Source: Pseudofrankia saprophytica
GTDB lineage: Bacteria; Actinomycetota; Actinomycetes; Frankiales; Frankiaceae
NCBI RefSeq assembly: GCF_000235425.2
Contig: NZ_KI912266.1
Span: 5,652,166-5,716,165, forward strand
Reading direction: 5' to 3'
DNA: 64,000 nt
Part shown: positions 19,144 to 32,642 of the stretch, piece by piece
How the letters are laid out: each line of letters opens with the position of its first letter
How positions within the stretch are numbered: position 1 is the first letter of the stretch
The notes under the pieces: model-generated
What the model was told of the DNA's origin: nothing
Databases searched by the model: none
Seen by the model: the letters and a program-made list of their open reading frames with translations, nothing else
Made by a program: the position numbers and the translations under genes

Positions 19144-20067
19144 CTACGTCAGAGACCGCCACCCTGGCGACTCGCTGGCTTTCAGGAGGTCGGCTTGTAC
19201 GACGTCCGTGGATTGCGGCGTGAACGGAGGCGCCGTCGCTGCGGCCTCCGCGCCTTCCGGTGGATTCTCCGATGTGTCGCCGGACGGCGGGAGGGCGAGG
19301 TGTTCCGGTTCCGTGGATTCTGGCGGGAAGGGTGGTCCTGTCGCTATCTTCCCCTTGTCGGTCGGTGGGTTCTCCGCCAGTTGCTCGTCCACTTCGCGTC
19401 GACGCTCTCCCGTCATTGCCACGGCCTGCGTGGGTGAGATGTCGGGGGTTACTTTCGCAGCCGAACCTTCCCCGCTCGGGACGGCCGCTGCGATGACCGC
19501 CGCGGCAACGAGTCCGATTTTCTTCAATGCGGGCGTCGAGCCGTCGGCCCGGTCCGAGTTCCCGGCCGGAGTTTCGGTCTCGGTCGGGAGCCCGGTTGTT
19601 TCGGGCCCGAACGTGCCGTCGAGACTGGCAGCCTTGTCGTGGGTGCTTGCGGGCAATGCTGCCTCCCCGGCTTCGTGATCGATCGGGGTTGAATGCTCCG
19701 CATTGACACCTGAGCCCGGTTCGATGGCCTGCCCCGGTGTATCGGCCTGCGTCGGATTCACGAGTGCCGATTCCACCGGGCTCGGTTCCGCCGGAACCCC
19801 GGCAGGTGCCTCGACAAGGTCCGGCAGGGGCTCCGCGGAGCCGTCGAGGGCGCTGGCCTTGGCAAGCGCGCCCTCCAGGGCGGGCGCGCCGGTCTCGACC
19901 GCGGCGCTCGACGCCTCCGTGGCGGCCTCCCCAGCGGTCTCCGCGACCGTGCCGACCGCTTCGGCGGCCTTCCCGGCCGCGCCGCCGACCTCCTCGGTAA
20001 CGGAACTGACCACGTCGGCGACCGCCTTGATGGTCTCGGAGATTCCTTGAACGGGAAGCTCAGACAT
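19144..20067 (-). CDS. Low-complexity acidic Ala/Pro/Glu/Thr-rich protein of the HerA operon
   Basis: The protein has 307 residues and no family is recognised. Residues 1-75 are Ala/Glu/Val-rich and predicted helical (SETIKAVADVVSSVTEEVGG and similar LEA-like repeats). Residues 75-190 are Pro/Glu/Thr-rich and likely disordered. A short hydrophobic stretch LVAAAVIAAAV lies at about residue 200. The tail holds two copies of a PPF-P-ST motif (GPPFPPEST and APPFTPQST). Its start overlaps the HerA-like gene stop by 8 bases, so it is translationally linked as third gene of the operon. The composition suggests a surface-exposed, scaffold or secreted partner of the ATPase complex, which is inference only. 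Confidence 0.75.
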   Translation of the reverse strand: MSELPVQGISETIKAVADVVSSVTEEVGGAAGKAAEAVGTVAETAGEAATEASSAAVETGAPALEGALAKASALDGSAEPLPDLVEAPAGVPAEPSPVESALVNPTQADTPGQAIEPGSGVNAEHSTPIDHEAGEAALPASTHDKAASLDGTFGPETTGLPTETETPAGNSDRADGSTPALKKIGLVAAAVIAAAVPSGEGSAAKVTPDISPTQAVAMTGERRREVDEQLAENPPTDKGKIATGPPFPPESTEPEHLALPPSGDTSENPPEGAEAAATAPPFTPQSTDVVQADLLKASESPGWRSLT

Positions 20068-23000
20068 GCGTGCCCTCCAGAGATCCGGCTTCGACGAGGT
20101 TGGCTGCCTGTTTGACGAGGTCGTCCAGGACGGTGCCCGAGCAGGCCTGGTGCATGGCTCGGTCGAGGCAGGCGGCGGTGTGGCCGCCGGTCAGGGCCAC
20201 GACCGCCTGACACAGTCGGCTGGTCGCCAGGTTCCCCGTGACGACCTGGTCCTGCCCGTCGGCGAACGAGCGGTGGACGAGCATGGCGTCGTGCTGGGCG
20301 CCCAGGGTGAGCCCGTCGAGGACGAGCCCGCGGCGGCGCCACAGGTCGGTGTCCGCGTGCGGCGGGGCGTCTCTCCCCAGCTTTCGGCAGCCTTCGACGA
20401 GGGCGCGCCGGACGTCGAGCCAGCGGTACATGCCGGCGGTGAACCGGCGGCCGTCGGCCGGTGCGAGCGGCGTCCCGTCGAGCTGGGCGAGCAGGAGCGC
20501 GAGCAGCCGATCGGCAAGGTCGTCGGGGTCTACCGCCCCGGCCAGCTGGGTGTTCCGGGCGGCGATCGCGCGCTCCACGCAGTAGTCGAGCGCGCAGCGC
20601 CGGATCTCCGGATCGGCCTCGCTCAGCAGGCCGGCCAGGGCCGGCCGGAGAAGTGGCGGCGGTGCCCCGCGCAGGTCTCCCAGGCCGGTGACGAGGTGCA
20701 TCGTCACGGCCTCGACCCAGACCACCAGGAGGGGTTCACGGGCCAGCCGGTCGGCGACGACCATGTGAACCAGCCGGCAGGGGCTGGCGGCGCAGGTCGG
20801 CGGGCACAGGCGCGATCGCGGCCCGGCCAGCGGAACTCCGTCGTAGGACGCCAGCCGCGGCGACTCCCGATTCCCACCTGGGGTCATCCGGACGAGCAGC
20901 GGCCGGTCCATGCCGTCGACGGTGACCGCGGCGACGCCCGGGGGCAGCGCGACGACGAGTTCGGACTGCTCCTCGGTGAGGTTCATCGTCGCGCCCACGA
21001 CCTGCCGGTCGTCGGCGGCCGGCAGGCGGTGCATCACCTTCAGCGCGGTGTTCTTGACGACGTCGGGCAGGATCTTCGCCGGGATCTGCTCCACGACGAT
21101 GACGCCCTCGCCGTAGGCGCGGATCTCGGCGAGCAGGGCGGCGAACATCTCCACCGCCGCCGCGGCCGGGCCGTCGGCGACGTTGCGCAGCAGCCGGTGC
21201 GCCTCCTCGACGACGAGCAGGTGCCGTAGCCCGTCGGCGCCCCCGCGGCCATGGCGAACCCGAAGGTGCTCGACGATCCGGATCAGCACGGCGCCGAGCA
21301 GGAACGCCTTGTCCTGGTCGTTGGTGATGTCCTCCAGCTCGAACACCACGTTGCGGGTCAGCAGCGCGCCGATGTCGATCGGATGCCCGCCCTCGAAGAA
21401 CCGCCCCGGGGTGCCCTCGCGCAGGCTGCCGATCCGCACGTCGACGAACCCGCGGACGTCGGCGGTCACCTCCGCCCCGTAGCCGATGTTCTGGATCACC
21501 GTGCTGGCGGTGCGCTGAAGGTCGCCCAGCGTCGGGTATCGCCGCCGGGTCGGCACGTCCGGGTCGGCGTCCGGCCCGCGGCGCCACAGCTTGGGTCTCG
21601 TCGGTGGTTCGGGCCGGTCCAGGACGAGGTTCCAGCCGTGCTCGCTGTAGCAGGCGGTCAGTGCGCGGGCCAGTACCTGTGGAAACGGCTCGTGGGCCTC
21701 GAACGCGGCGAGGAACAGCGCTCGGACCAGGTCGAGGTGGCTCTGCAACGGGAAACCCGGCTCGGGTTCGAGCGGGTTCAACGATGGCGGGCGGACGCCG
21801 GTCAGCCCTGGCCGGATGACGACGACCTCGCCGTGACCGGCGAGCCGGCCGGCCATCCGGGCGTACTCGGCCTTCGCCGGTTCGAGCACCAGCCAGGGGA
21901 TCGGCTCCGGCGCGAGACTCACCGACTCCAGCAGCGAGCGCACGGTCTGCGACTTGCCCGCGCCCGTGGCGCCGCAGACGAAGGCATGCCGGTTCAGCGT
22001 CGCCCGGGACACCATCAGCGGCCCGCTCGGCGCCCAGCCGGCGTCCAGCACGTCACCCAGCAGCACCGGCGTCCCGCCGCCGGGTTCGGCGCTCCTGGTG
22101 GGTCCCCCGTTCTCTTCGGGGGTCACGTCGAACGTGTGGGGCAGGACCAGGTTGATGCCCGGGAGTTCCCGGCGGGGCAGCCGAGCGATCGCCATGACGA
22201 GTTCCGCGCTCGCGGCGAAGGGGGCACGCGGGCCATCGTCGTCGACCGCCCCGGTGTCAGCTCGCGGGCCGTGGGCCGGACCGGACCGGACGCCTTCCGC
22301 GGCGGTGGGGCCGGTGGCGAACGACCAGGACGGGGCGCTGGCGACCGGTCCGCACGGGGCGAGGGCGTAGGGCAGGCCGTCCAGGTCACTCGATCCGCAC
22401 ATCAGCGCGGCGACCATCCGGGCCGAGGCCGCGGACGTGGCGCCGACCTGGATGTCCACGTCCCACATGCCGACTGAGTGGGCCCGGCTCAGTTCCCGGT
22501 ACCGCGACTCGGCACGTTCGAGGTCCACCTTCGCCGAGGCCAGGTTCTCCCGCTGCCGCAGCAGCGGGATCCGCGCGGTCAGGTGGGCCAGCTCGAGGTC
22601 GACGTCCGTCGCCGGCCGAGGCTGGGCCACCACCAGCCACGCGTACGCCGTGTCGAGGTGGGCCGCGTAGTCGTCGAAGCCTCCCCGGCGTACGGGGTTG
22701 GTTCCCCGCGCCTCGGGCGCCCAGAGTGCCTCGGGGCGCCCGGCGCACCGCAGCCAGCAGGGGAAGGCGTCCAGATCCGCGGCGACGTCCAGCGTGCTGA
22801 CCGGCCGAGCGAGACTGCCCGGCGGGTAGAGGACCCGGCGCGGGCCGTCGCCGTCCTGGCCCGCGACCGCCTCCTGAACGTCGGCCGGCGGGAAGAACGG
22901 CCGCCCGCCGAGCAGGAACCGCATCCGGCGCTCACCCCGCGGTCGGATCCAGCCGACCATGATCGCGGGCGAGGCGGCACCGCTGGCCGCGCCCGCGGTC

Positions 23001-23146
23001 TCGCCGGGGCCGGCACGGCTGGTCAGCTCGGCGTGCGCGCCGATGAGCGCGGCGAAGACCTGGGCGCCGGCCAGCTCGGTGTCCGCGGAGCCCGCGCGCG
23101 GCCTGGGCACCGACACGACCTGGAAGAGCTCGAACCCGTCGAACAC
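20060..23146 (-). CDS. HerA/VirB4-like ATPase (DUF87-type) with long N- and C-terminal extensions
   Basis: The protein has 1028 residues. The N-terminal 370 residues are family-specific, with a charged helical stretch at about 185-225 (LLRQRENLASAKVDLERAES). The HerA/FtsK-type motor has Walker A CGATGAGKSQT near residue 392, LVLEPAKAEYARMAG after it, Walker B LLVVEEAHRLL near 645, and a sensor VVEQIPAKILPDVVKNT. The last 250 residues contain CPPTCAASPC and a helical region. HerA-like ATPases are hexameric DNA or protein translocases. The GTG start directly abuts the TAG stop of the upstream membrane gene (zero spacing), so the products are made together. Its conserved motor and membrane partner suggest a translocation machine at the membrane. 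The substrate is unknown. Confidence 0.85.
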   Translation of the reverse strand: MFDGFELFQVVSVPRPRAGSADTELAGAQVFAALIGAHAELTSRAGPGETAGAASGAASPAIMVGWIRPRGERRMRFLLGGRPFFPPADVQEAVAGQDGDGPRRVLYPPGSLARPVSTLDVAADLDAFPCWLRCAGRPEALWAPEARGTNPVRRGGFDDYAAHLDTAYAWLVVAQPRPATDVDLELAHLTARIPLLRQRENLASAKVDLERAESRYRELSRAHSVGMWDVDIQVGATSAASARMVAALMCGSSDLDGLPYALAPCGPVASAPSWSFATGPTAAEGVRSGPAHGPRADTGAVDDDGPRAPFAASAELVMAIARLPRRELPGINLVLPHTFDVTPEENGGPTRSAEPGGGTPVLLGDVLDAGWAPSGPLMVSRATLNRHAFVCGATGAGKSQTVRSLLESVSLAPEPIPWLVLEPAKAEYARMAGRLAGHGEVVVIRPGLTGVRPPSLNPLEPEPGFPLQSHLDLVRALFLAAFEAHEPFPQVLARALTACYSEHGWNLVLDRPEPPTRPKLWRRGPDADPDVPTRRRYPTLGDLQRTASTVIQNIGYGAEVTADVRGFVDVRIGSLREGTPGRFFEGGHPIDIGALLTRNVVFELEDITNDQDKAFLLGAVLIRIVEHLRVRHGRGGADGLRHLLVVEEAHRLLRNVADGPAAAAVEMFAALLAEIRAYGEGVIVVEQIPAKILPDVVKNTALKVMHRLPAADDRQVVGATMNLTEEQSELVVALPPGVAAVTVDGMDRPLLVRMTPGGNRESPRLASYDGVPLAGPRSRLCPPTCAASPCRLVHMVVADRLAREPLLVVWVEAVTMHLVTGLGDLRGAPPPLLRPALAGLLSEADPEIRRCALDYCVERAIAARNTQLAGAVDPDDLADRLLALLLAQLDGTPLAPADGRRFTAGMYRWLDVRRALVEGCRKLGRDAPPHADTDLWRRRGLVLDGLTLGAQHDAMLVHRSFADGQDQVVTGNLATSRLCQAVVALTGGHTAACLDRAMHQACSGTVLDDLVKQAANLVEAGSLEGTHV

Positions 23147-25162
23147 CTAACCCCCCGGCTCGGTGACCTGACGACCGCGGGACACCCGATATCCGTGATC
23201 CCCGGTGCGGGCCCGTTCGGAGACGGCCGCCGGACGCGCCGACCGTGGGACCGCGGACGTGTTGCGCAGGGACGCCAGACCGGGGTTGCAGTCGCCGGAT
23301 CGGGTCAGGCGGTTGCCTTCCACCGTGTCGATCAGGAAGAACGCGGTCCCGGGCAGGCTCTGGATCCGGGTTGGCTCGACGGCGAACTCGTAGACGCGCT
23401 GGACGGTCGCGCCGTGGCTGACGCTGTCCGCCACAGCGAGGTTGTGGGTGGTCTGCCAGCTGCGCGACCAGTTGTGCGACGACGACTCGGTGCCCGCCGC
23501 GTGGGTGTACGACCAGCCCTCCTGTCCGCCGACGCTCTCGGCGGACCCCTTGGTCAGTGAGCGGCCGACCTGCACCGTGAGCTGTGAGAACACGAACTTG
23601 TAACCACGTCCGATGAACCGCGCGGCGGCCTCGGCCTCCCGCGCGTTGCCGAGCTGCATGACGACGGTGGCGCTGCCCGGCGAACCGATCAGCTTCTCGA
23701 CCTCGTCGTCCAGGCCGTGGTGGAGGTAGACCAGCCGTGCCTTCGCCCGGGTCGCATAGCGGGCGAGCTCGCGCAGCGCCGCGCGGCCGAGATGGTCCAC
23801 CCCGGCAACGACGAGGACCATTCCCGTCGGAGTCGGCCGCCGTTGCCGGAGATGGTGCAGAACGACCTGAAAGGTGACCCGGTCGGTAAGGTCCTTCCCG
23901 GCGCTCGACGTCATCCGCGCCGAGGTCTCCACGATCCGCAGGCCTGGCCCCGGTGACCACCAGTGGTCACCGTCGGGCGTCGTCGTCTCCGCCTCGTTCT
24001 CGGCCGTGACCGGCCCGATCGGCGGGCCGGCAAGTAGCTGCACCGAGGCGCGGACGTGTCGCACCTCGTCCCGCGCCCGGTCGCTGCGGGTGAACCGGTC
24101 CATCGCCGCGACGAGGCCGGTGATCTCCTCGGTGGTGAGCAGGGCCGCGATGCCCTCGTCGTCGGCGCTCTCGAGAACGCGCAACCCGGCGGCGATGCGC
24201 GGGAAGGTGAATGATCCGCCCAGCCGGTCGACTACCGTCCGCACGATGTCTGCGTCCAGGGTGCGCATCGCCGGGTCCGCGCCTTCGCCGCGGACCGAGT
24301 GCACCGCCTCGGCCAGCAGGTCCGCCACCTCGTCCGCGCCGAGCGCGTCAAGCGACATCAGCCGCGGCAGGTCCGCGGGCAGCTCCCAGCGGCGAACCTG
24401 ATGGTCCTCCTGCGCCGCCAGGTCGGCCAGCCCGTGCGCGACACCCCACTCGCTCAGGTCGAGCACGACGATGCCAGCGCCGCCCGCCAGCGCCGATGAC
24501 CCGAACGTGGCCAGTAGGCTCGCCCAGCCGGCCTCCGTGCCACCCACCACGTCGAGCCGCTCGCAGGGCGAACGCAACAGGATCGGATCGAACAGCGTCG
24601 CCGCCGCACGTCGTCGGCGCTCGGCCTCCTCGTGACCGTCGAACGCCTTCTTCCACTTCGCCCACGTGTTCCGGTACGACACCTGCGCGTTGAAGACCTC
24701 GACCCGCCATTTCTCCCGCCGCGCTTCGAGCTTGGATTTCAGGCGCCTCTCGATCCAGGAAAACCGCACGAGGCAAAGAAGACCGAAAGGGGCGATCATG
24801 AGTAGGAATTCGGCGGCGAGAACAGGGTAGCTGTAGCCTTGGTCTTCTATCTCGGACTTGCGCCAGCTCGGCACCAGAAACGTTATGGTCACACCGACGA
24901 GGGCCAGGGCGGCGAACGCGGCGAGGATGCCGGTCAGAAAGCCGAACAGCCCGAACACCCCGAGGGCGACATCACGCTTCTTCAGCTGCGCGCGCACCTC
25001 TTTCTCGTTGAACGACGGCTCCACGAGCCTGGGTTCACGGCCGCGGTGCGGGTTAGGCCTGCGGCCAGGATCCAGGTAGGCCCAGCCCAGCCGCCAGGAG
25101 GGACTGGAAACGAAGAGTGCGCGGGCTAGCTCGGGAGTCGGAACCTCAGGACCAACCGTCAT
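23147..25162 (-). CDS. Two-pass membrane protein resembling a TraD/VirD4 coupling protein with a degenerate P-loop
   Basis: The protein has 671 residues from the ATG at 25160-25162, preceded by GGGGG. The frame extends to 25195. Two membrane helices lie at about residues 66-97 and 110-133, followed by a charged helix (RRLKSKLEARREKWRVEV). The cytoplasmic domain then has the layout of a TraD/FtsK motor, but where Walker A is expected it reads VVGGTEAGWAS (about 205-215), lacking the P-loop Lys. The strand GIVVLDLSEWG follows. Near the end, VMQLGNAREAEAAARFIG and FAVEPTRIQSLPGTAFFLI resemble the C-terminal motifs of coupling proteins. It is the first gene of the operon with the active HerA-like ATPase. 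I infer a catalytically dead membrane anchor. Confidence 0.7.
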   Translation of the reverse strand: MTVGPEVPTPELARALFVSSPSWRLGWAYLDPGRRPNPHRGREPRLVEPSFNEKEVRAQLKKRDVALGVFGLFGFLTGILAAFAALALVGVTITFLVPSWRKSEIEDQGYSYPVLAAEFLLMIAPFGLLCLVRFSWIERRLKSKLEARREKWRVEVFNAQVSYRNTWAKWKKAFDGHEEAERRRRAAATLFDPILLRSPCERLDVVGGTEAGWASLLATFGSSALAGGAGIVVLDLSEWGVAHGLADLAAQEDHQVRRWELPADLPRLMSLDALGADEVADLLAEAVHSVRGEGADPAMRTLDADIVRTVVDRLGGSFTFPRIAAGLRVLESADDEGIAALLTTEEITGLVAAMDRFTRSDRARDEVRHVRASVQLLAGPPIGPVTAENEAETTTPDGDHWWSPGPGLRIVETSARMTSSAGKDLTDRVTFQVVLHHLRQRRPTPTGMVLVVAGVDHLGRAALRELARYATRAKARLVYLHHGLDDEVEKLIGSPGSATVVMQLGNAREAEAAARFIGRGYKFVFSQLTVQVGRSLTKGSAESVGGQEGWSYTHAAGTESSSHNWSRSWQTTHNLAVADSVSHGATVQRVYEFAVEPTRIQSLPGTAFFLIDTVEGNRLTRSGDCNPGLASLRNTSAVPRSARPAAVSERARTGDHGYRVSRGRQVTEPGG

Positions 25163-25297
25163 CCAACCCCCACGACGTCGTCGACCCGCTCGCAATCGGC
25201 CGCAACCACATCAATTGTCCCCCGAAAAAGAGCGGCGCGGGGCCCGCATGGCGCATGTGGTCCAGTCATCCACGCGACACTTCGAGAGGGGTTGGGT

Positions 25298-26122
25298 GGC
25301 GCTGTTGCACAGGCCGATGTCGTGGTCCATCTGGGTGCTCGAGGCATGATCGAGTGGTGTCTCGAGGCCGCGCTCGTCCGTCGGTGCCGGTGTCGGAGTT
25401 CGCCGGGTACCGGTTCCCGGCCGAGGTGATCGTTCTCGGCGTGCGCTGGTATCTGCGGTTCACGCTGTCAGATCGGGACGTCGAGGAGCTGCTGGCCGAG
25501 CGCGGCATCGAGGTCGATCACGTCACGATCTGCCGGTGGGTCCGCCGGTTCACGCCGCTGCTGGTCGACGCCGCCAGGCCGTGTCGCCACAGCCCTGGTG
25601 CCAGGTGGTTCGCCGAAGAAACGTATGTCAAGATCACGGGTCGGTCGTGCTTCCTGTACCGGGCGATCGACCAGTTCGGGCAGGTCATCGACGTGCCGGC
25701 ATCCGAGAAACGGGACCTGGCCGCCGCGCGCCGGTTCTTCGCCCGGGCTTTGTCGCACGGTCGCCGCCCAGTGGAGGTGACCACCGACCGGGCCCCGGCC
25801 TACCCGCAGGTCCTGGACGAGCAGCTGCCCGCCGCGCCCCATCTCGACGTCCGGTATGCGAACAACAAGGTCGAAGCTGATCACGGCCGGCTGAAAGCCC
25901 GGCTGCGGCCGATGCACGGGCTCAAACGCCTGCGCTCCGCCAGACGGTCAGCACCGGACACGCCCTGATCCAGAACATCCGCCGCGGCCACTACGAACTC
26001 GCCACCGACGCCGAGCCACAGCTGCGGCTATCGCTCGCGTTCACTGAACTCGCCGCGATGGTCTGATCCTCGCGCCTGTCAGGGCCTTCGCGCGCCCCCG
26101 GCCCTCCGAATGCAACAGGCCC
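25298..26122 (+). mobile_element. IS6-family element, left copy, inactive
   Basis: The left end GGCGCTGTTGCAC (25298-25310) matches the known IS6/IS26 terminal repeat GGCACTGTTGCAAA. The right end ATGCAACAGGCCC (26110-26122) matches its reverse complement at 10 of 13 positions. The length of about 825 bp is normal for the family. No flanking 8-bp duplication was found. The same orientation copy at 28523 brackets the amine oxidase gene. Confidence 0.8.
25357..26067 (+). pseudogene. IS6-family transposase, frameshifted, first catalytic Asp changed
   Basis: The frame from GTG 25357 shows FPAEVIVLGVRWYLRF, RDVEELLAERGIEVDHVTI (helix-turn-helix) and the DDE core. The first acidic motif reads WFAEETYVKI where the family has DET, so the first catalytic Asp is Glu. 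The second Asp is in TTDRAPAYP and the third residue is in NNKVEADHGRLKARL. A one-base deletion near 25943 shifts the frame into a stop at 25968. The correct reading then continues in another frame (GHALIQNIRRGHYELATDAE) to a stop at 26065-26067. Both lesions should inactivate it. Confidence 0.85.
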
Positions 26123-29441: not shown

Positions 29442-32400
29442 GTGATATGGGACCCTAGATGGGTGGTGACCGAAGCGGACTCGCCCGCTGGCCCGCAAAC
29501 TGGCGGCGGCGTAGATTTTCTCGTGTCCTACATAGAAACCGACGAGGAGTGGGCGACCTGGATATCCAGTCGGCTGGAGGAAGCCGGGTACAGCGTTCGG
29601 GTTGAGGCATGGGACCTCTCCGTCGGGATGCACCGGACCGGGGAGCAGCATCGCGCCCTGATAGAAGCAAAGCGGATCATAGCGGTTGCCTCGCCTGCCT
29701 ATTTTGCGTCAAAGCGTAAGGCGGTGGAATGGCTATCCGCACTGGCGGAGGACCCGTTGGGTGATCTCCGCAAACTCCTGCCGATGCGGGTAGAAGACTT
29801 CCTCTTGCCGGGATTGCTTTCCGAACGGGTCACTACCGACCTGTTCGGCGTTGATGAAGCAACCGCCTATGAACGGCTGCTGGCGGCCGTGCGCGGCGCG
29901 AAGAGACCTGAACATGTCCTGGCGTTCCCAGGCAGGCCAGGTACTGGTACTGGCCAGAAGGCGCTGTACTTCCCCGGTCAGTTTCAGGGACGGGGGGCGG
30001 CATGGCCGCCGGGCAGGTCACCATTTCCCGGTCTCGCTGCCTTCGACGCCAGCCTGGCGGCAGTGTTCAAAGGCCGAGACGCGGAGATCAGATGGCTCGT
30101 AGACACCTTGACCAGCCCGGCTGGGGACAGAGCTGGGCTGCTGGCAGTGGTTGGCCCGTCCGGGTGCGGCAAGTCGTCTCTTGTCGCAGCCGGGCTTGTC
30201 CCGGCGATGACGGACGATCCCTACCACTGGCTGGTGGCACCTCCCTTCGCCCCCGGTGACCGGCCACTGGTCGCGTTGGCAGAGGTGCTCGCCGATCTAG
30301 CCCGCGATCACGGGTTGAATTGGGAAAGCAGCCAGCTGACCAGCCAGCTCGCCAAGCCGGATGCGATCGTGGAGGTTACGCGAGCACTTCTCGCGGCAGC
30401 TCGGACCGCGCCGCGGCTGCTGGTCATCATCGACCAAGCGGAGGAGCTGCTGGTTCGAGCCAGCCCAGACAGCAGGAAGGAATTTCTCGCCGTGCTCGCC
30501 GCGGCAAGTGCCGGACCTGTGCGGGTGGTCGCTACCCTGCGCTCGGAGTATCTTGGACGGCTCGTCGAGGAGACCACACAGGTAGGGCTACCAATACGTA
30601 CCGAGGCAATCCTCCCATTGCGCCAAGAAATGCTTCGTCTGGTGGTCAGCGAGCCGGCGCGACTGGCCGGGCTGACCATCGACGACCAGCTGGTTGCTCG
30701 TCTGGTTACCGACACCGGAGACGGGCAAGCCCTGCCGCTACTTGCCTTTACGCTACAACGGCTCTGCGTCCAAGCGCACCGGGTAGGCACGACAATAATC
30801 TCCGATGTTCTGTACGAAGCTATCGGCGAAGTGCGTAGCGTTCTCATCGAACATGCCGACGTCGCCCTCGACAAGGCCGCCACCGCTACTGGCCTCAGCC
30901 GTGAAGAGGTGCTGACTGGCCTGCTGCAACTGATCAGCGTTGACACCGAGGGCCGCCCAACGCGCCACCGTCTTACCCTCGACGACATAAATGATCGCAT
31001 CCGCAGTACACTCGCGCCGTTCATTGCCCACCGGCTGCTTACTGTTGACGCTACTCCCGGCGGCTCAGCGACCATTGACATCGCCCACGAACGGCTCTTC
31101 GCAGACTGGTGCCCTCTCGCCAAAGCGATCGATCAGAGGTCCGACCAGCTCCGGCTACGCAGTCAGGCCGATACTGCTGCCGCCGACTGGGATCATCACG
31201 GTCGCCCACCCAAACGGTTGTGGAGCCTTCCCCTAGCGGCTGAAGCACTCGCTGCTTTCGACTCAGACAACCTCACGTCCGTCACCCGCGATTTTCTGAT
31301 CGATAGCCGTCGTCGAGGCCGACGCAGGCTCGCCCGCATTTGGACCGTTTTTATCGGCCTCCTCGTCGCCCTCGTCGTTCTTGTGGTCTATGGCCTTCAG
31401 ATGAGGGGTACTGCGGAAGAAGGAGACCGTGTCAGGACCGCCGACCAGCTCCTTGTCCGCGCCGACAGTATCCGCGCCAAGGACCCGGTCCTAGCACTTC
31501 GTCTTGCCGTGGCCGCCTACGACCTTTCCCCCCGCAATCACCGAGACCGCATTCGCGGCAATCTGCTCGGCCTCTTGGGCGACACCCCCGCTCTGCGCGC
31601 CACCATCACCGCCCACTCCAGCCAGGTGTGGGTAGTGGCCTTTGGACCCAATGAGACACTGGCCTCCGCCGGCAACGACGGAACGGTACTGCTATGGAAC
31701 GTCACAGACCCAGCGCACCCCGACCCGGCGGGTCGCTTCTTCACGGGTGACGCCGGCCTTTTGTCCACAATGACATTCAGCGTCAATGGGCTCATCGCCA
31801 CAACCAGCGACAGCGGGACGGCACAACTCTGGGACGTCACTGACCCCACCAACCCTCAGCAACTCGACGCTTCCTTCATCGGCCCCGTCGACACGCTGGC
31901 CTTCGGCCCTGGCGGAGTTCTCGCCGCCGTCAGCGGGAAGACGGTGCAGCTCTGGGACGTCACCGACCCGGCCAACCCTCGCAGAGGCGGCAGTCTGACC
32001 GGCCACACCGACGATATATTCACGCTGGCATTCGGACCAAACGGTATCCTCGCCACCGCCAGCTGGGACACCACAGTACGACTGTGGGACGTCACTGATC
32101 TCGATCACCCCTACCAGCGCGGTAAGCCTCTTACCACCAGCTACGCCAGTTCGGTGACCTCGGTGGCCTTCGGACGAAATGGGATACTAGTATCCGCCAG
32201 CGATGACGGGACAGTACGACTGTGGGACGTGGCCAGTCCAGATAGCGCCCACCAGTTTGGCAACCCCCTCACCGGCCACACCAACTCTGAGGCGGACGTG
32301 GCGCTCGGACCCGGCAGTCTCCTCGCCACCGCCGACGAGAAGACGATACAGCTCTGGGACATATCCGACCCAATCAATCCACGCCAAGTCGGCGACCCCC

Positions 32401-32642
32401 TCACCGCCCACACCGACTCGATATCCAAACTGGAATTTGGCCCCGACGGCATCCTCGCCACCGCCAGCTGGGACACCACAGTACGACTGTGGGACGCCGC
32501 CAGTTTGCAGCAGCTTCGGACGCATGTGGTAGAGGTGTCCTGTCAACGCGCGGGCGGCGGCCTAACCGAAAAAGAATGGGACCAGTATCTGCCGGATGAA
32601 CCATTCCGGAATACCTGCGACCCAGCCCGCATCGGGCGTTAG
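29442..32642 (+). CDS. TIR domain - nSTAND NTPase - membrane segment - WD40 protein (probable defence sensor)
   Basis: The protein has 1066 residues. Residues about 24-130 are a TIR_2 domain (VDFLVSYIETDEEWATWIS, AEWDLSVG-like AWDLSVGM, AVEWLSAL with the candidate catalytic Glu). The NTPase has Walker A VGPSGCGKSSL at about 238 and Walker B LLVIIDQAEELL near 325. One membrane helix lies at about 631-653 (FIGLLVALVVLVVYG). Seven or so WD40 blades follow from about residue 714, many with the motif VRLWDV/VQLWDV. TIR-NTPase-repeat proteins are known or suspected anti-phage sensors in which TIR cleaves NAD. The GTG at 29442 is uncertain because its AGGA is too close. Codon use is visibly more AT-rich than neighbours. 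It sits beside IS remnants, suggesting transfer. Confidence 0.88.
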   Translation: MIWDPRWVVTEADSPAGPQTGGGVDFLVSYIETDEEWATWISSRLEEAGYSVRVEAWDLSVGMHRTGEQHRALIEAKRIIAVASPAYFASKRKAVEWLSALAEDPLGDLRKLLPMRVEDFLLPGLLSERVTTDLFGVDEATAYERLLAAVRGAKRPEHVLAFPGRPGTGTGQKALYFPGQFQGRGAAWPPGRSPFPGLAAFDASLAAVFKGRDAEIRWLVDTLTSPAGDRAGLLAVVGPSGCGKSSLVAAGLVPAMTDDPYHWLVAPPFAPGDRPLVALAEVLADLARDHGLNWESSQLTSQLAKPDAIVEVTRALLAAARTAPRLLVIIDQAEELLVRASPDSRKEFLAVLAAASAGPVRVVATLRSEYLGRLVEETTQVGLPIRTEAILPLRQEMLRLVVSEPARLAGLTIDDQLVARLVTDTGDGQALPLLAFTLQRLCVQAHRVGTTIISDVLYEAIGEVRSVLIEHADVALDKAATATGLSREEVLTGLLQLISVDTEGRPTRHRLTLDDINDRIRSTLAPFIAHRLLTVDATPGGSATIDIAHERLFADWCPLAKAIDQRSDQLRLRSQADTAAADWDHHGRPPKRLWSLPLAAEALAAFDSDNLTSVTRDFLIDSRRRGRRRLARIWTVFIGLLVALVVLVVYGLQMRGTAEEGDRVRTADQLLVRADSIRAKDPVLALRLAVAAYDLSPRNHRDRIRGNLLGLLGDTPALRATITAHSSQVWVVAFGPNETLASAGNDGTVLLWNVTDPAHPDPAGRFFTGDAGLLSTMTFSVNGLIATTSDSGTAQLWDVTDPTNPQQLDASFIGPVDTLAFGPGGVLAAVSGKTVQLWDVTDPANPRRGGSLTGHTDDIFTLAFGPNGILATASWDTTVRLWDVTDLDHPYQRGKPLTTSYASSVTSVAFGRNGILVSASDDGTVRLWDVASPDSAHQFGNPLTGHTNSEADVALGPGSLLATADEKTIQLWDISDPINPRQVGDPLTAHTDSISKLEFGPDGILATASWDTTVRLWDAASLQQLRTHVVEVSCQRAGGGLTEKEWDQYLPDEPFRNTCDPARIGR
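32046..32091 (+). repeat. 46-bp exact repeat inside WD40 coding region, copy 1
   Basis: It is identical over 46 bases to 32451-32496, 405 bases (135 codons, three blades) downstream. It encodes ILATASWDTTVRLWD. Such identity at DNA level indicates recent duplication or gene conversion of WD40 blades. Confidence 0.85.
32451..32496 (+). repeat. 46-bp exact repeat inside WD40 coding region, copy 2
   Basis: Second copy of the repeat described at 32046, in the last WD40 blade. The flanking bases differ, so the unit of recent exchange is short. Confidence 0.85.

What the first reader, a model, noticed from the sequence alone, without database searches (positions are those of the whole stretch)
19144..25162. 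Three-gene membrane motor operon: dead coupling-protein-like anchor, active HerA-like ATPase, low-complexity acidic partner
The membrane protein has two helices and a motor-like domain whose P-loop reads GGTEAGWAS with no Lys. The next gene, at zero spacing, has a perfect Walker A and B of HerA/VirB4 type. The third overlaps by 8 bases and is disordered, with a repeated PPF-P-ST motif. Known HerA partners (NurA, SIR2, DUF4297) are absent. A pseudo-ATPase paired with an active ATPase at the membrane suggests an export, DNA-uptake or defence machine not described for this combination.
Basis: partly seen in the sequence, partly recalled or inferred. Interest (0 to 1): 0.85.

Follow-up and report, generated by a model that had tools for sequence, protein, structure and literature searches.

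The report
Toxin-export motor with a dead subunit
Three linked genes in a Frankia-like soil bacterium encode a membrane protein that looks like a burnt-out motor, a working motor, and a floppy passenger; in relatives the passenger's place is often taken by a protein ending in a changeable toxin, so this looks like an unrecognised machine for exporting toxins.

Summary
On the minus strand lie A (23147-25162, membrane protein), B (20060-23146, ATPase) and C (19144-20067, disordered). AlphaFold2/Foldseek place A with the T4SS coupling protein TrwB/VirD4 (E 1e-7) and B with VirB4/TrwK (E 1e-10), then HerA. The P-loop Lys of A is gone (W in 47, Lys in 0, of 54 sequences); B keeps GxTGxGKS and EEAH in 49 of 49. 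A is found beside B in 75 of 80 actinomycete loci.

The key result lies outside the window: the gene after B in relatives is a polymorphic-toxin-like protein, a disordered N-part plus a variable C-terminal domain. At most 16 of 61 such ORFs match Pfam toxin families (calpain, YwqJ-deaminase, Zeta, CdiA tRNase, ADP-ribosyltransferase, nuclease and others); some are followed by a matching immunity gene (MORN/YwqK-like, YezG-like, Imm49). Best reading: a T4SS-derived export system for polymorphic toxins, with an active VirB4-like motor and a catalytically dead coupling protein as membrane receptor. No channel was identified and secretion is untested. C in the window has no toxin domain. Closest hints in print: one alarmone-synthetase locus near TrwB/TrwK/TrwI genes (PMC12691689) and T4SS-tagged Lipocone toxins (PMC12419801).

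The parts
23147..25162 (-). A: membrane pseudo-ATPase with the fold of a T4SS coupling protein (TrwB/VirD4), 671 aa
   Evidence: AF2 pLDDT 81.8, pTM 0.75; the first 32 Foldseek PDB rows are TrwB or Cagbeta
24518..24544 (-). P-loop position of A: GGTEAGWAS, Lys replaced by Trp (residues 207-215)
   Evidence: sequence; W in 47 of 54, K in 0 of 54; register with coupling-protein P-loops in hhalign, probability only 23.5%
24743..25006 (-). predicted membrane anchor of A (helix 53-96 and start of helix 112-187)
   Evidence: AF2 model helices; that they span the membrane is inference
23411..23572 (-). serine-rich disordered insert of A (residues 531-584)
   Evidence: pLDDT below 50; alignment
20060..23146 (-). 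B: VirB4/HerA-type ATPase, 1028 aa, with an extra helical C-terminal domain (about residues 783-1026)
   Evidence: AF2 pLDDT 88.6, pTM 0.83; Foldseek R388 inner-membrane complex chain E 9e-11, TrwK/VirB4 E 2e-10; Pfam HerA_C, DUF87
21950..21973 (-). Walker A of B, GATGAGKS (residues 392-399)
   Evidence: K and S invariant in 49 of 49
21197..21214 (-). Walker B of B, VVEEAH (residues 645-650)
   Evidence: EEAH invariant in 49 of 49 (EEAH was part of the search pattern)
20777..20806 (-). conserved Cys cluster of B (C781, C785, C790), possible metal site
   Evidence: invariant in alignment A3, 14 sequences, not in the invariant list of the 49-sequence alignment; metal binding is inference
19144..20067 (-). 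C: disordered protein in the cargo position, 307 aa, no recognisable toxin domain
   Evidence: translation; no Pfam match up to E 1; no convincing reading frame follows on this strand
19840..19860 (-). cargo-type repeat KASALDG in C (residues 70-76)
   Evidence: AxxLDG test
19615..19638 (-). cargo-type repeat DKAASLDG in C (residues 144-151)
   Evidence: AxxLDG test

Best explanation
A, B and C are the receptor, motor and passenger of a type-IV-secretion-derived protein export system that actinomycetes use to move polymorphic toxins. Shown by sequence and model: A has a membrane-anchored coupling-protein fold that has lost its nucleotide-binding Lys; B is an intact VirB4/HerA-family ATPase; the gene after B in relatives is a disordered carrier that in a good part of the loci ends in one of many different toxin domains, sometimes followed by a matching immunity gene. 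Inferred: the disordered N-part of the cargo is the export signal; A captures it at the membrane without hydrolysing ATP; a B hexamer supplies the power to unfold and thread it outwards, so that A has kept the receptor job of VirD4 and handed the energy job to VirB4. In the window copy the passenger has no toxin end, so this copy is either an accessory carrier or a decayed one. The transmembrane channel is unknown.
For: A fold: TrwB, Foldseek E 1.2e-7. B fold: R388 inner-membrane complex chain E 9e-11, TrwK/VirB4 E 2e-10, VirB4 4ag6 TMt 0.70. P-loop dead in A, intact in B. Linkage: A found in 75 of 80 B loci (the 80 are the best of 547 matches to the B alignment); of the 78 with a called B ORF, 44 have A upstream on the same strand, overlapping or within 400 bases, 14 the order B..A, 7 opposite strands, 3 A upstream at a distance, 10 no called A ORF (5 of these found by tblastn); among 296 class genomes 31 of 33 with B have A. 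A/B distance matrices correlate, r 0.81 over 40 rows, 0 of 1000 permutations reach it. Immunity after the cargo, 36 ORFs: Imm49 3, MORN_2 3, YezG-like 1, HD_4 1; pairs seen one by one: L129 nuclease/YezG-like, L134 RelA_SpoT (25.9 bits, cut-off 27)/HD. The last 120 codons of cargo are foreign in composition: GC 0.624 against 0.680 (rest) and 0.712 (B), P 8e-7, 52 genes. L116 and L118 share the first 423-472 residues but not the rest. NCBI-annotated operon on Streptomyces clavuligerus pSCL4: hypothetical (A), ATP-binding protein (B), ADP-ribosyltransferase, small ORF, overlapping or 10 bases apart; A and B confirmed there by HMM, with GGTSDGWA and GATGGGKS.
Against: No channel was identified: apart from A and B the largest gene cluster in the 80 loci covers 10 loci (an ABC-type ATPase), and conserved small membrane proteins are local (7 Frankia loci; family f17). 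SCO6880-type T4SS genes are not universal partners: 24 of 31 genomes with A and B have any match. C in the window has no toxin domain and none follows it. At least 45 of the 61 cargo ORFs have no Pfam toxin hit. Some related cargo pairs share both parts (L121/L122, L149/L156, L179/L180) or mainly the C-part (L165/L178). A without B exists in 19 genomes. Sequence-profile support that A is a coupling protein is weak (TrwB E 0.09; hhalign 23.5%): the case rests on the fold, with modest TM-scores (TMt 0.49-0.57). The full-length B/TrwK superposition has rmsd 17-18 A. The control scan lists only the 25 most frequent of 138 families, so single-member families are unseen. Shared host history may explain part of the A/B correlation. 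No secretion experiment exists.
Confidence: 0.63

Rival explanations
1. An intracellular defence or suicide module: B (HerA-like) with A senses invading DNA at the membrane and releases or activates the toxin end of the third protein inside the same cell.
For: B profile hits include antiphage HerA and mad8; in five Frankia-family loci a GAP1/DO-GTPase-type conflict protein lies next to A (Pfam checked on L034 only); Zeta, RelA and ADP-ribosyltransferase domains also act in self-killing modules (recalled).
Against: Immunity-type families (Imm49, MORN_2, YezG-like) match at least 7 times among the 36 ORFs scanned after the cargo, which fits toxins sent to other cells; no NurA, SIR2 or DUF4297 match in the 8 window ORFs scanned (not searched for in the other loci).
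Confidence: 0.16
2. A DNA-transfer (conjugation-like) pump; toxins are merely neighbours that travel with it.
For: Both folds are those of conjugation ATPases; homologues occur on plasmids, and 6 of 42 plasmid records matching B at E 1e-20 are typed conjugative (these include distant HerA-like proteins).
Against: The cargo ORF starts within -65 to +60 bases of the end of B in 57 of 61 (my start choice favours overlaps); of 19 plasmid records with an A match 16 are typed non-mobilizable, 3 mobilizable, 0 conjugative (many are copies of one S. clavuligerus plasmid). Relaxase genes were not searched for.
Confidence: 0.08
3. A and B serve the cell envelope (for example wall synthesis), and toxin cargo is a later or local addition.
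For: In one family (L038, L071-L076) A-B sits in a conserved block upstream of MurT-GatD, which amidate the peptidoglycan precursor (recalled), and a further clade keeps A alone there (L081-L090) (Pfam checked on L038).
Against: In the 80 named loci no MurT- or GatD-like cluster came up among the 16 gene clusters printed (by eye), while toxin families follow B.
Confidence: 0.1

Closest known systems
Type IV secretion system ATPases VirB4 (TrwK) and VirD4 (TrwB)
   Same: Folds of B and A respectively; VirD4-type proteins are the substrate receptors of T4SS (review PMC12857230, passages seen).
   Different: A has lost the Walker A Lys; no VirB2/B3/B6/B8/B10 set was recognised beside the pair; B carries an extra helical C-terminal domain.
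Bacteria-killing T4SS of Xanthomonas/Stenotrophomonas
   Same: A T4SS that transfers toxins into target cells (starts of abstracts of PMC6759196 and PMC8262851 in search listings).
   Different: That is a full Gram-negative machine with an active VirD4 and a C-terminal recognition domain (recalled; the C-terminal domain also in the start of the abstract of PMC11253643 in a listing); here the disordered part is N-terminal and the toxin C-terminal.
Exported alarmone synthetase of Streptomyces albireticuli near TrwB/TrwK/TrwI (PMC12691689, section 9 read)
   Same: A RelA-type synthetase gene next to TrwB- and TrwK-like genes in Streptomyces; our L134 has A, B, a RelA_SpoT-type cargo and an HD gene.
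   Different: One locus noted in a sentence; no dead P-loop and no general cargo family described in that section. Identity with our family not tested.
Polymorphic toxin systems (PMC3482391, passages read; PMC12419801, 12 of 17 passages)
   Same: Variable C-terminal toxin domains, adjacent immunity genes. PMC12419801 names T4SS (VirD4-binding domain) among delivery routes of Lipocone toxins, and a table row of PMC3482391 lists T4SS for Ntox21.
   Different: [quoted passage not shown] the passages seen describe no VirB4/dead-VirD4 pair.
T7SS EccC/YueA
   Same: FtsK/HerA-superfamily motor with inactive units beside an active one, exporting toxins in Gram-positives (footnote on mobile T7SS versions and text in PMC3482391).
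   Different: Here the intact and dead units are separate proteins; the EccC profile match of B is marginal (E 0.083).
NCBIfam NF033849 ser_rich_anae_1
   Same: A 1163-position model whose C-part matches B (1.5e-13) and whose serine-rich part matches A at noise level (0.48).
   Different: Single chain; no match over its cut-off in 246 genomes of the phylum; function unknown.

Membership tests
Type IV secretion system | VirB4-type ATPase | tested here: met
   Foldseek TrwK/VirB4 E 2e-10, VirB4 TMt up to 0.70
Type IV secretion system | VirD4/TrwB coupling-protein fold at the membrane | tested here: met
   Foldseek TrwB E 1.2e-7, TMt 0.49-0.57; two long N-terminal helices; weak by sequence profile
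Type IV secretion system | catalytically competent coupling protein | tested here: not met
   no Lys in the P-loop in 54 of 54; activity itself not testable here
Type IV secretion system | channel subunits (VirB3/B6/B8/B10 types) encoded with the ATPases | tested here: inconclusive
   no gene cluster beside A-B exceeds 10 of 80 loci, 16 clusters printed; local small membrane proteins exist; SCO6880 in 24 of 31 A+B genomes
Polymorphic toxin system | exchangeable C-terminal toxin domain on a conserved carrier | tested here: met
   ten families in 61 ORFs of relatives; shared N, different C in L116/L118; not met in the window copy C
Polymorphic toxin system | adjacent immunity gene | tested here: met
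   Imm49, MORN_2, YezG-like after the cargo in relatives; none identified in the window
Polymorphic toxin system | N-terminal domain tying it to a known export route | tested here: inconclusive
   no export-type Pfam domain in the N-parts of the proteins shown one by one; tally
HerA antiphage systems (HerA with SIR2, DUF4297 or NurA) | partner enzyme gene beside HerA | tested here: not met
   none among 8 window ORFs scanned (which also held 2 ORFs of L021); other loci not searched for these partners
T7SS | EccC motor with EccB/EccD and WXG100 partners | not tested
   no dedicated search made; EccC match of B only E 0.083
GAP1/DO-GTPase conflict systems | GAP1 and double GTPase in the neighbourhood | tested here: not met
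   not among the 8 window ORFs scanned; such a protein lies beside A in five Frankia-family loci

The most novel reading that the evidence does not exclude
A distinct, widespread actinomycete secretion system, not yet numbered, built from a VirB4 motor and a pseudo-VirD4 receptor (P-loop Lys replaced by Trp), dedicated to polymorphic toxins that carry a disordered N-terminal export tag, and working with a minimal or unknown channel through a single-membrane envelope.
Probability: 0.43. Interest if true: 0.92.

Novelty: new variant of a known kind. Interest (0 to 1): 0.8.

Why it matters
How actinomycetes export protein toxins without a signal peptide is poorly known beyond T7SS, contractile injection systems and umbrella particles (recalled). 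A compact A-B-toxin-immunity operon, found from Frankia to Streptomyces, Nocardia and Kribbella, would give a new route, a new source of toxins and immunity proteins, and a natural experiment in dividing the receptor and motor jobs of a secretion ATPase between a dead and a live enzyme. A ready test bed exists: a four-gene operon on the S. clavuligerus plasmid pSCL4.

Tried and rejected
A common export motif for all cargo: rejected, because AxxLDG is enriched only in Frankia-family cargo (6 of 13, others 3 of 55) and a run of five or more prolines near the start is found in 13 of 61 only. Dependence on the SCO6880 T4SS-like locus: rejected as general, since 7 of 31 A+B genomes have no match. 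A first profile comparison of A with coupling proteins used wrong frames; it was redone with the 5 of 20 loci that passed the frame and P-loop filters, giving weak support for A (23.5%) and strong for B (96%). A-B as a MurT-GatD accessory: seen in one family only. DNA-uptake and antiphage readings: no positive evidence. Rows dropped before the cargo count: of 80 loci, 15 were set aside (7 where the next ORF is A itself; L103, L104, L127, L146, L162, L168, L170, L171 with no credible ORF or an open end), 2 ended at the contig edge, and 2 cargo ORFs were open-ended, leaving 61; L173 among the 61 is probably not cargo (HD domain, inference), and L179/L180 are 98% identical. Immunity scan: 36 of 50 candidate ORFs were given. 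Control scan: 61 of 74 candidate ORFs were given. Some unnamed loci are the same DNA as named ones (L029 = L111 by sequence, L036 = L138 by identity of cargo; others by equal contig length), so counts from the two sets are not added.
Full report
OBSERVATION. A has no Pfam or PADLOC match up to E 1, only noise in NCBIfam (best 0.13), and no PDB sequence match up to E 1. B matches HerA_C, DUF87 and many HerA profiles. C has no Pfam or PADLOC match and only noise in NCBIfam (0.41). The host is a 9.98 Mb actinomycete; its genome is held unnamed, and contigs of the same family have the lengths of named Frankia and Parafrankia contigs (inference).

HOMOLOGUES. In 58 related genomes A is found in 26 and B in 28 at E 1e-3 (weak hits included). 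In a draw of 296 genomes of the class, profile searches find A in 50 at E 1e-3 and B in 33 at E 1e-20. 31 of the 33 also have A (the other two, G170 and G228, are partial, weaker matches; in G201 A and B are on different contigs), while 19 genomes have A without B: 4 of genus g3 and 15 of family f17. A is present in 75 of these 80 (HMM plus tblastn). Of the 5 without A, 2 have B near the contig edge (L115, L168) and 3 had room (L139, L172, L178). Of the 78 loci with a called B ORF, 44 have A upstream on the same strand (overlapping or within 400 bases), 14 have the order B..A, 7 are on opposite strands, 3 have A upstream at a distance, and 10 had no called A ORF (5 found by tblastn); in 2 loci B was miscalled by my ORF caller.

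A IS A DEAD COUPLING PROTEIN BY FOLD. The AlphaFold2 model of A from 54 sequences has pLDDT 81.8 and pTM 0.75. Foldseek against the PDB puts TrwB and Cagbeta in all of the first 32 rows, from E 1.2e-7, then HerA, VirB4, the Legionella coupling complex and TdpAB. TM-scores are modest (TMt 0.49-0.57 for TrwB). Sequence-only support is weak: TrwB at E 0.09 in a profile search of the PDB, and hhalign probability 23.5% against five actinobacterial coupling proteins, although the P-loop comes into register. The P-loop column holds W in 47 of 54 and never K. The usual Walker B DE seems replaced by G-A/V, followed by D (my reading of the register).

B IS AN INTACT VIRB4-TYPE MOTOR. The B model (49 sequences) has pLDDT 88.6 and pTM 0.83. 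Best matches are a chain of the R388 T4SS inner-membrane complex (E 9e-11), TrwK/VirB4 (E 2e-10; about 890-910 columns, rmsd 17-18 A), VirB4 of Thermoanaerobacter (TMt 0.67-0.70), then archaeal and antiphage HerA. K and S of the P-loop and EEAH are invariant in 49 of 49 (EEAH was part of the search pattern, GKS was not). A helical C-terminal domain is extra; three cysteines at its start are invariant in 14 of 14 sequences but not in the list of the 49-sequence alignment. A and B distances correlate at r 0.81 over 40 rows, which shared ancestry of the hosts may partly explain.

THE THIRD GENE IS A TOXIN CARGO IN RELATIVES. In 57 of 61 full-length cases the ORF after B starts between -65 and +60 bases from its end (my choice of start favours overlaps). 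Its N-part is mostly low-complexity, rich in Pro, Glu, Asp, Ala, Ser and Thr in those printed; 13 of 61 have a run of five or more prolines near the start. In 61 ORFs from named genomes, at E 0.01, it found calpain 3, YwqJ-deaminase 3, Zeta 2, CdiA tRNase 2, and one each of ADP-ribosyltransferase, Endonuclea_NS_2, Gln_amidase, CdiA_C, RelA_SpoT and RHS, so at most 16 of 61 with a toxin family (a protein may count twice, near-identical loci such as L179/L180 are included). The ORF after the cargo gave Imm49 3, MORN_2 3, YezG-like 1, HD_4 1 among 36, next to unrelated families such as nucleoside hydrolase 3 and protein kinase 1. Pairs checked one by one: L129 nuclease with YezG-like; L134 RelA_SpoT (25.9 bits, cut-off 27) with an HD-domain protein 226 bases on; L125 has Imm49 after a cargo with no Pfam hit. 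L111, L121 and L122 have a deaminase-type end and are followed by related small proteins, MORN_2 in the one shown, L111. As a control, 61 ORFs upstream of the pair gave 138 families; the 25 most frequent, which are all that the tool lists, hold no toxin or immunity family, but families with one member are not seen. The last 120 codons of cargo genes are poorer in GC than the rest (0.624, 0.680; B 0.712; 52 genes; P 8e-7) and lie below their own N-part in 37 of 52. L116 and L118 share the N-part but not the C-part; L128 and L134 share 276 residues, after which L128 ends; against this, L121/L122, L149/L156 and L179/L180 share both parts, and L165/L178 mainly the C-part. NCBI annotation of the S. 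clavuligerus plasmid pSCL4 shows the whole set independently: hypothetical protein (A), ATP-binding protein (B), ADP-ribosyltransferase, small ORF. A Streptomyces antimycoticus plasmid has A, B, a 664-aa ORF, a 94-aa ORF and an HD gene. A and B of both plasmids were confirmed by HMM, with GGTxDGWA in A and GATGxGKS in B.

THE WINDOW COPY. C has two AxxLDG repeats, a motif of Frankia-family cargo (6 of 13 with the window left out, 0.4 expected), but no toxin end, and no convincing frame follows on the minus strand. An IS240-type transposase gene lies just upstream of A (25117-25968). The genome has a second A-B pair on its second contig whose cargo has a long C-part without a Pfam hit. The window copy may therefore be an accessory or decayed unit.

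MECHANISM. Shown: the folds (as models), the dead and intact P-loops, the linkage, the toxin cargo and the immunity genes in relatives. Inferred: export, direction, the N-part as signal, A as a non-hydrolysing receptor, B as the motor. Unknown: the channel. Besides A and B the largest gene cluster in the 80 loci covers 10 of them (16 clusters printed, strict BLAST criteria). A 348-aa protein with one predicted membrane segment recurs in 7 Frankia loci, and four small or multi-span membrane proteins lie near A-B in family f17, three of them divergent from it; these are candidates only. SCO6880-type T4SS genes occur in 24 of 31 A+B genomes, and in genus g3 A sits beside such a locus without B, so a T4SS-like channel elsewhere in the genome is possible but not required everywhere.

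KNOWN OR NEW. PMC3482391 (passages) lists the export routes of polymorphic toxins and says T4SS do not appear to be used by classical ones, although a table row lists T4SS for Ntox21. PMC12419801 (12 of 17 passages) names T4SS, by a VirD4-binding domain, among delivery routes of Lipocone toxins. PMC7159879 (section 29 and passages) describes GAP1-N2 systems without such a pair. PMC12691689 (abstract, passages and section 9) notes one Streptomyces alarmone-synthetase gene near TrwB, TrwK and TrwI, the nearest hint found. The passages of PMC12857230 that were shown (12 of 20) describe no such system. Library searches, judged by titles and starts of abstracts, showed no paper on the pair; most subscription papers and all preprints are outside the library. 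I therefore call it a new variant of a known kind (T4SS-derived secretion).

Noticed in passing
L213 6613-11966 (own genome, C1 about 3.25 Mb): Another B-like ATPase (HMM E 1.7e-111) followed at -4 by an 81-aa acidic ORF and a 656-aa Ser-rich ORF, with no A found by HMM: a related A-less system.
   Followed up: partly
L214 4050-10855 (same phylum, outside the class by its listing): An 838-aa ORF, a 1141-aa B-like ATPase (2.6e-66) and small ORFs in a row; possibly the wider ser_rich_anae_1 family.
   Followed up: no
L034-L037, L039: A GAP1-N2/GAP1-M and DO-GTPase protein (about 1000 aa; Pfam checked on L034 only) lies next to A in five Frankia-family loci.
   Followed up: partly
L038, L071-L076 and L081-L090: In one family A-B sits upstream of MurT-GatD; a further clade keeps only A there, with a conserved C-terminal tail. 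Why A alone persists is unexplained.
   Followed up: partly
L026 2471-10728: In genus g3 A without B lies beside SCO6880, SCO6881-like and VirB4-like genes.
   Followed up: partly
window 25117-25968: IS240-type DDE transposase immediately upstream of A, possibly affecting its promoter.
   Followed up: no
window 29442-32642: TIR-nSTAND-WD40 protein, a defence-type architecture about 4 kb from A.
   Followed up: no
L148, L149, L151, L153, L156: In Nocardia loci the cargo-position gene is followed by a nucleoside-hydrolase-like gene (Pfam match in 3 of the 36 ORFs scanned) in a conserved block.
   Followed up: no
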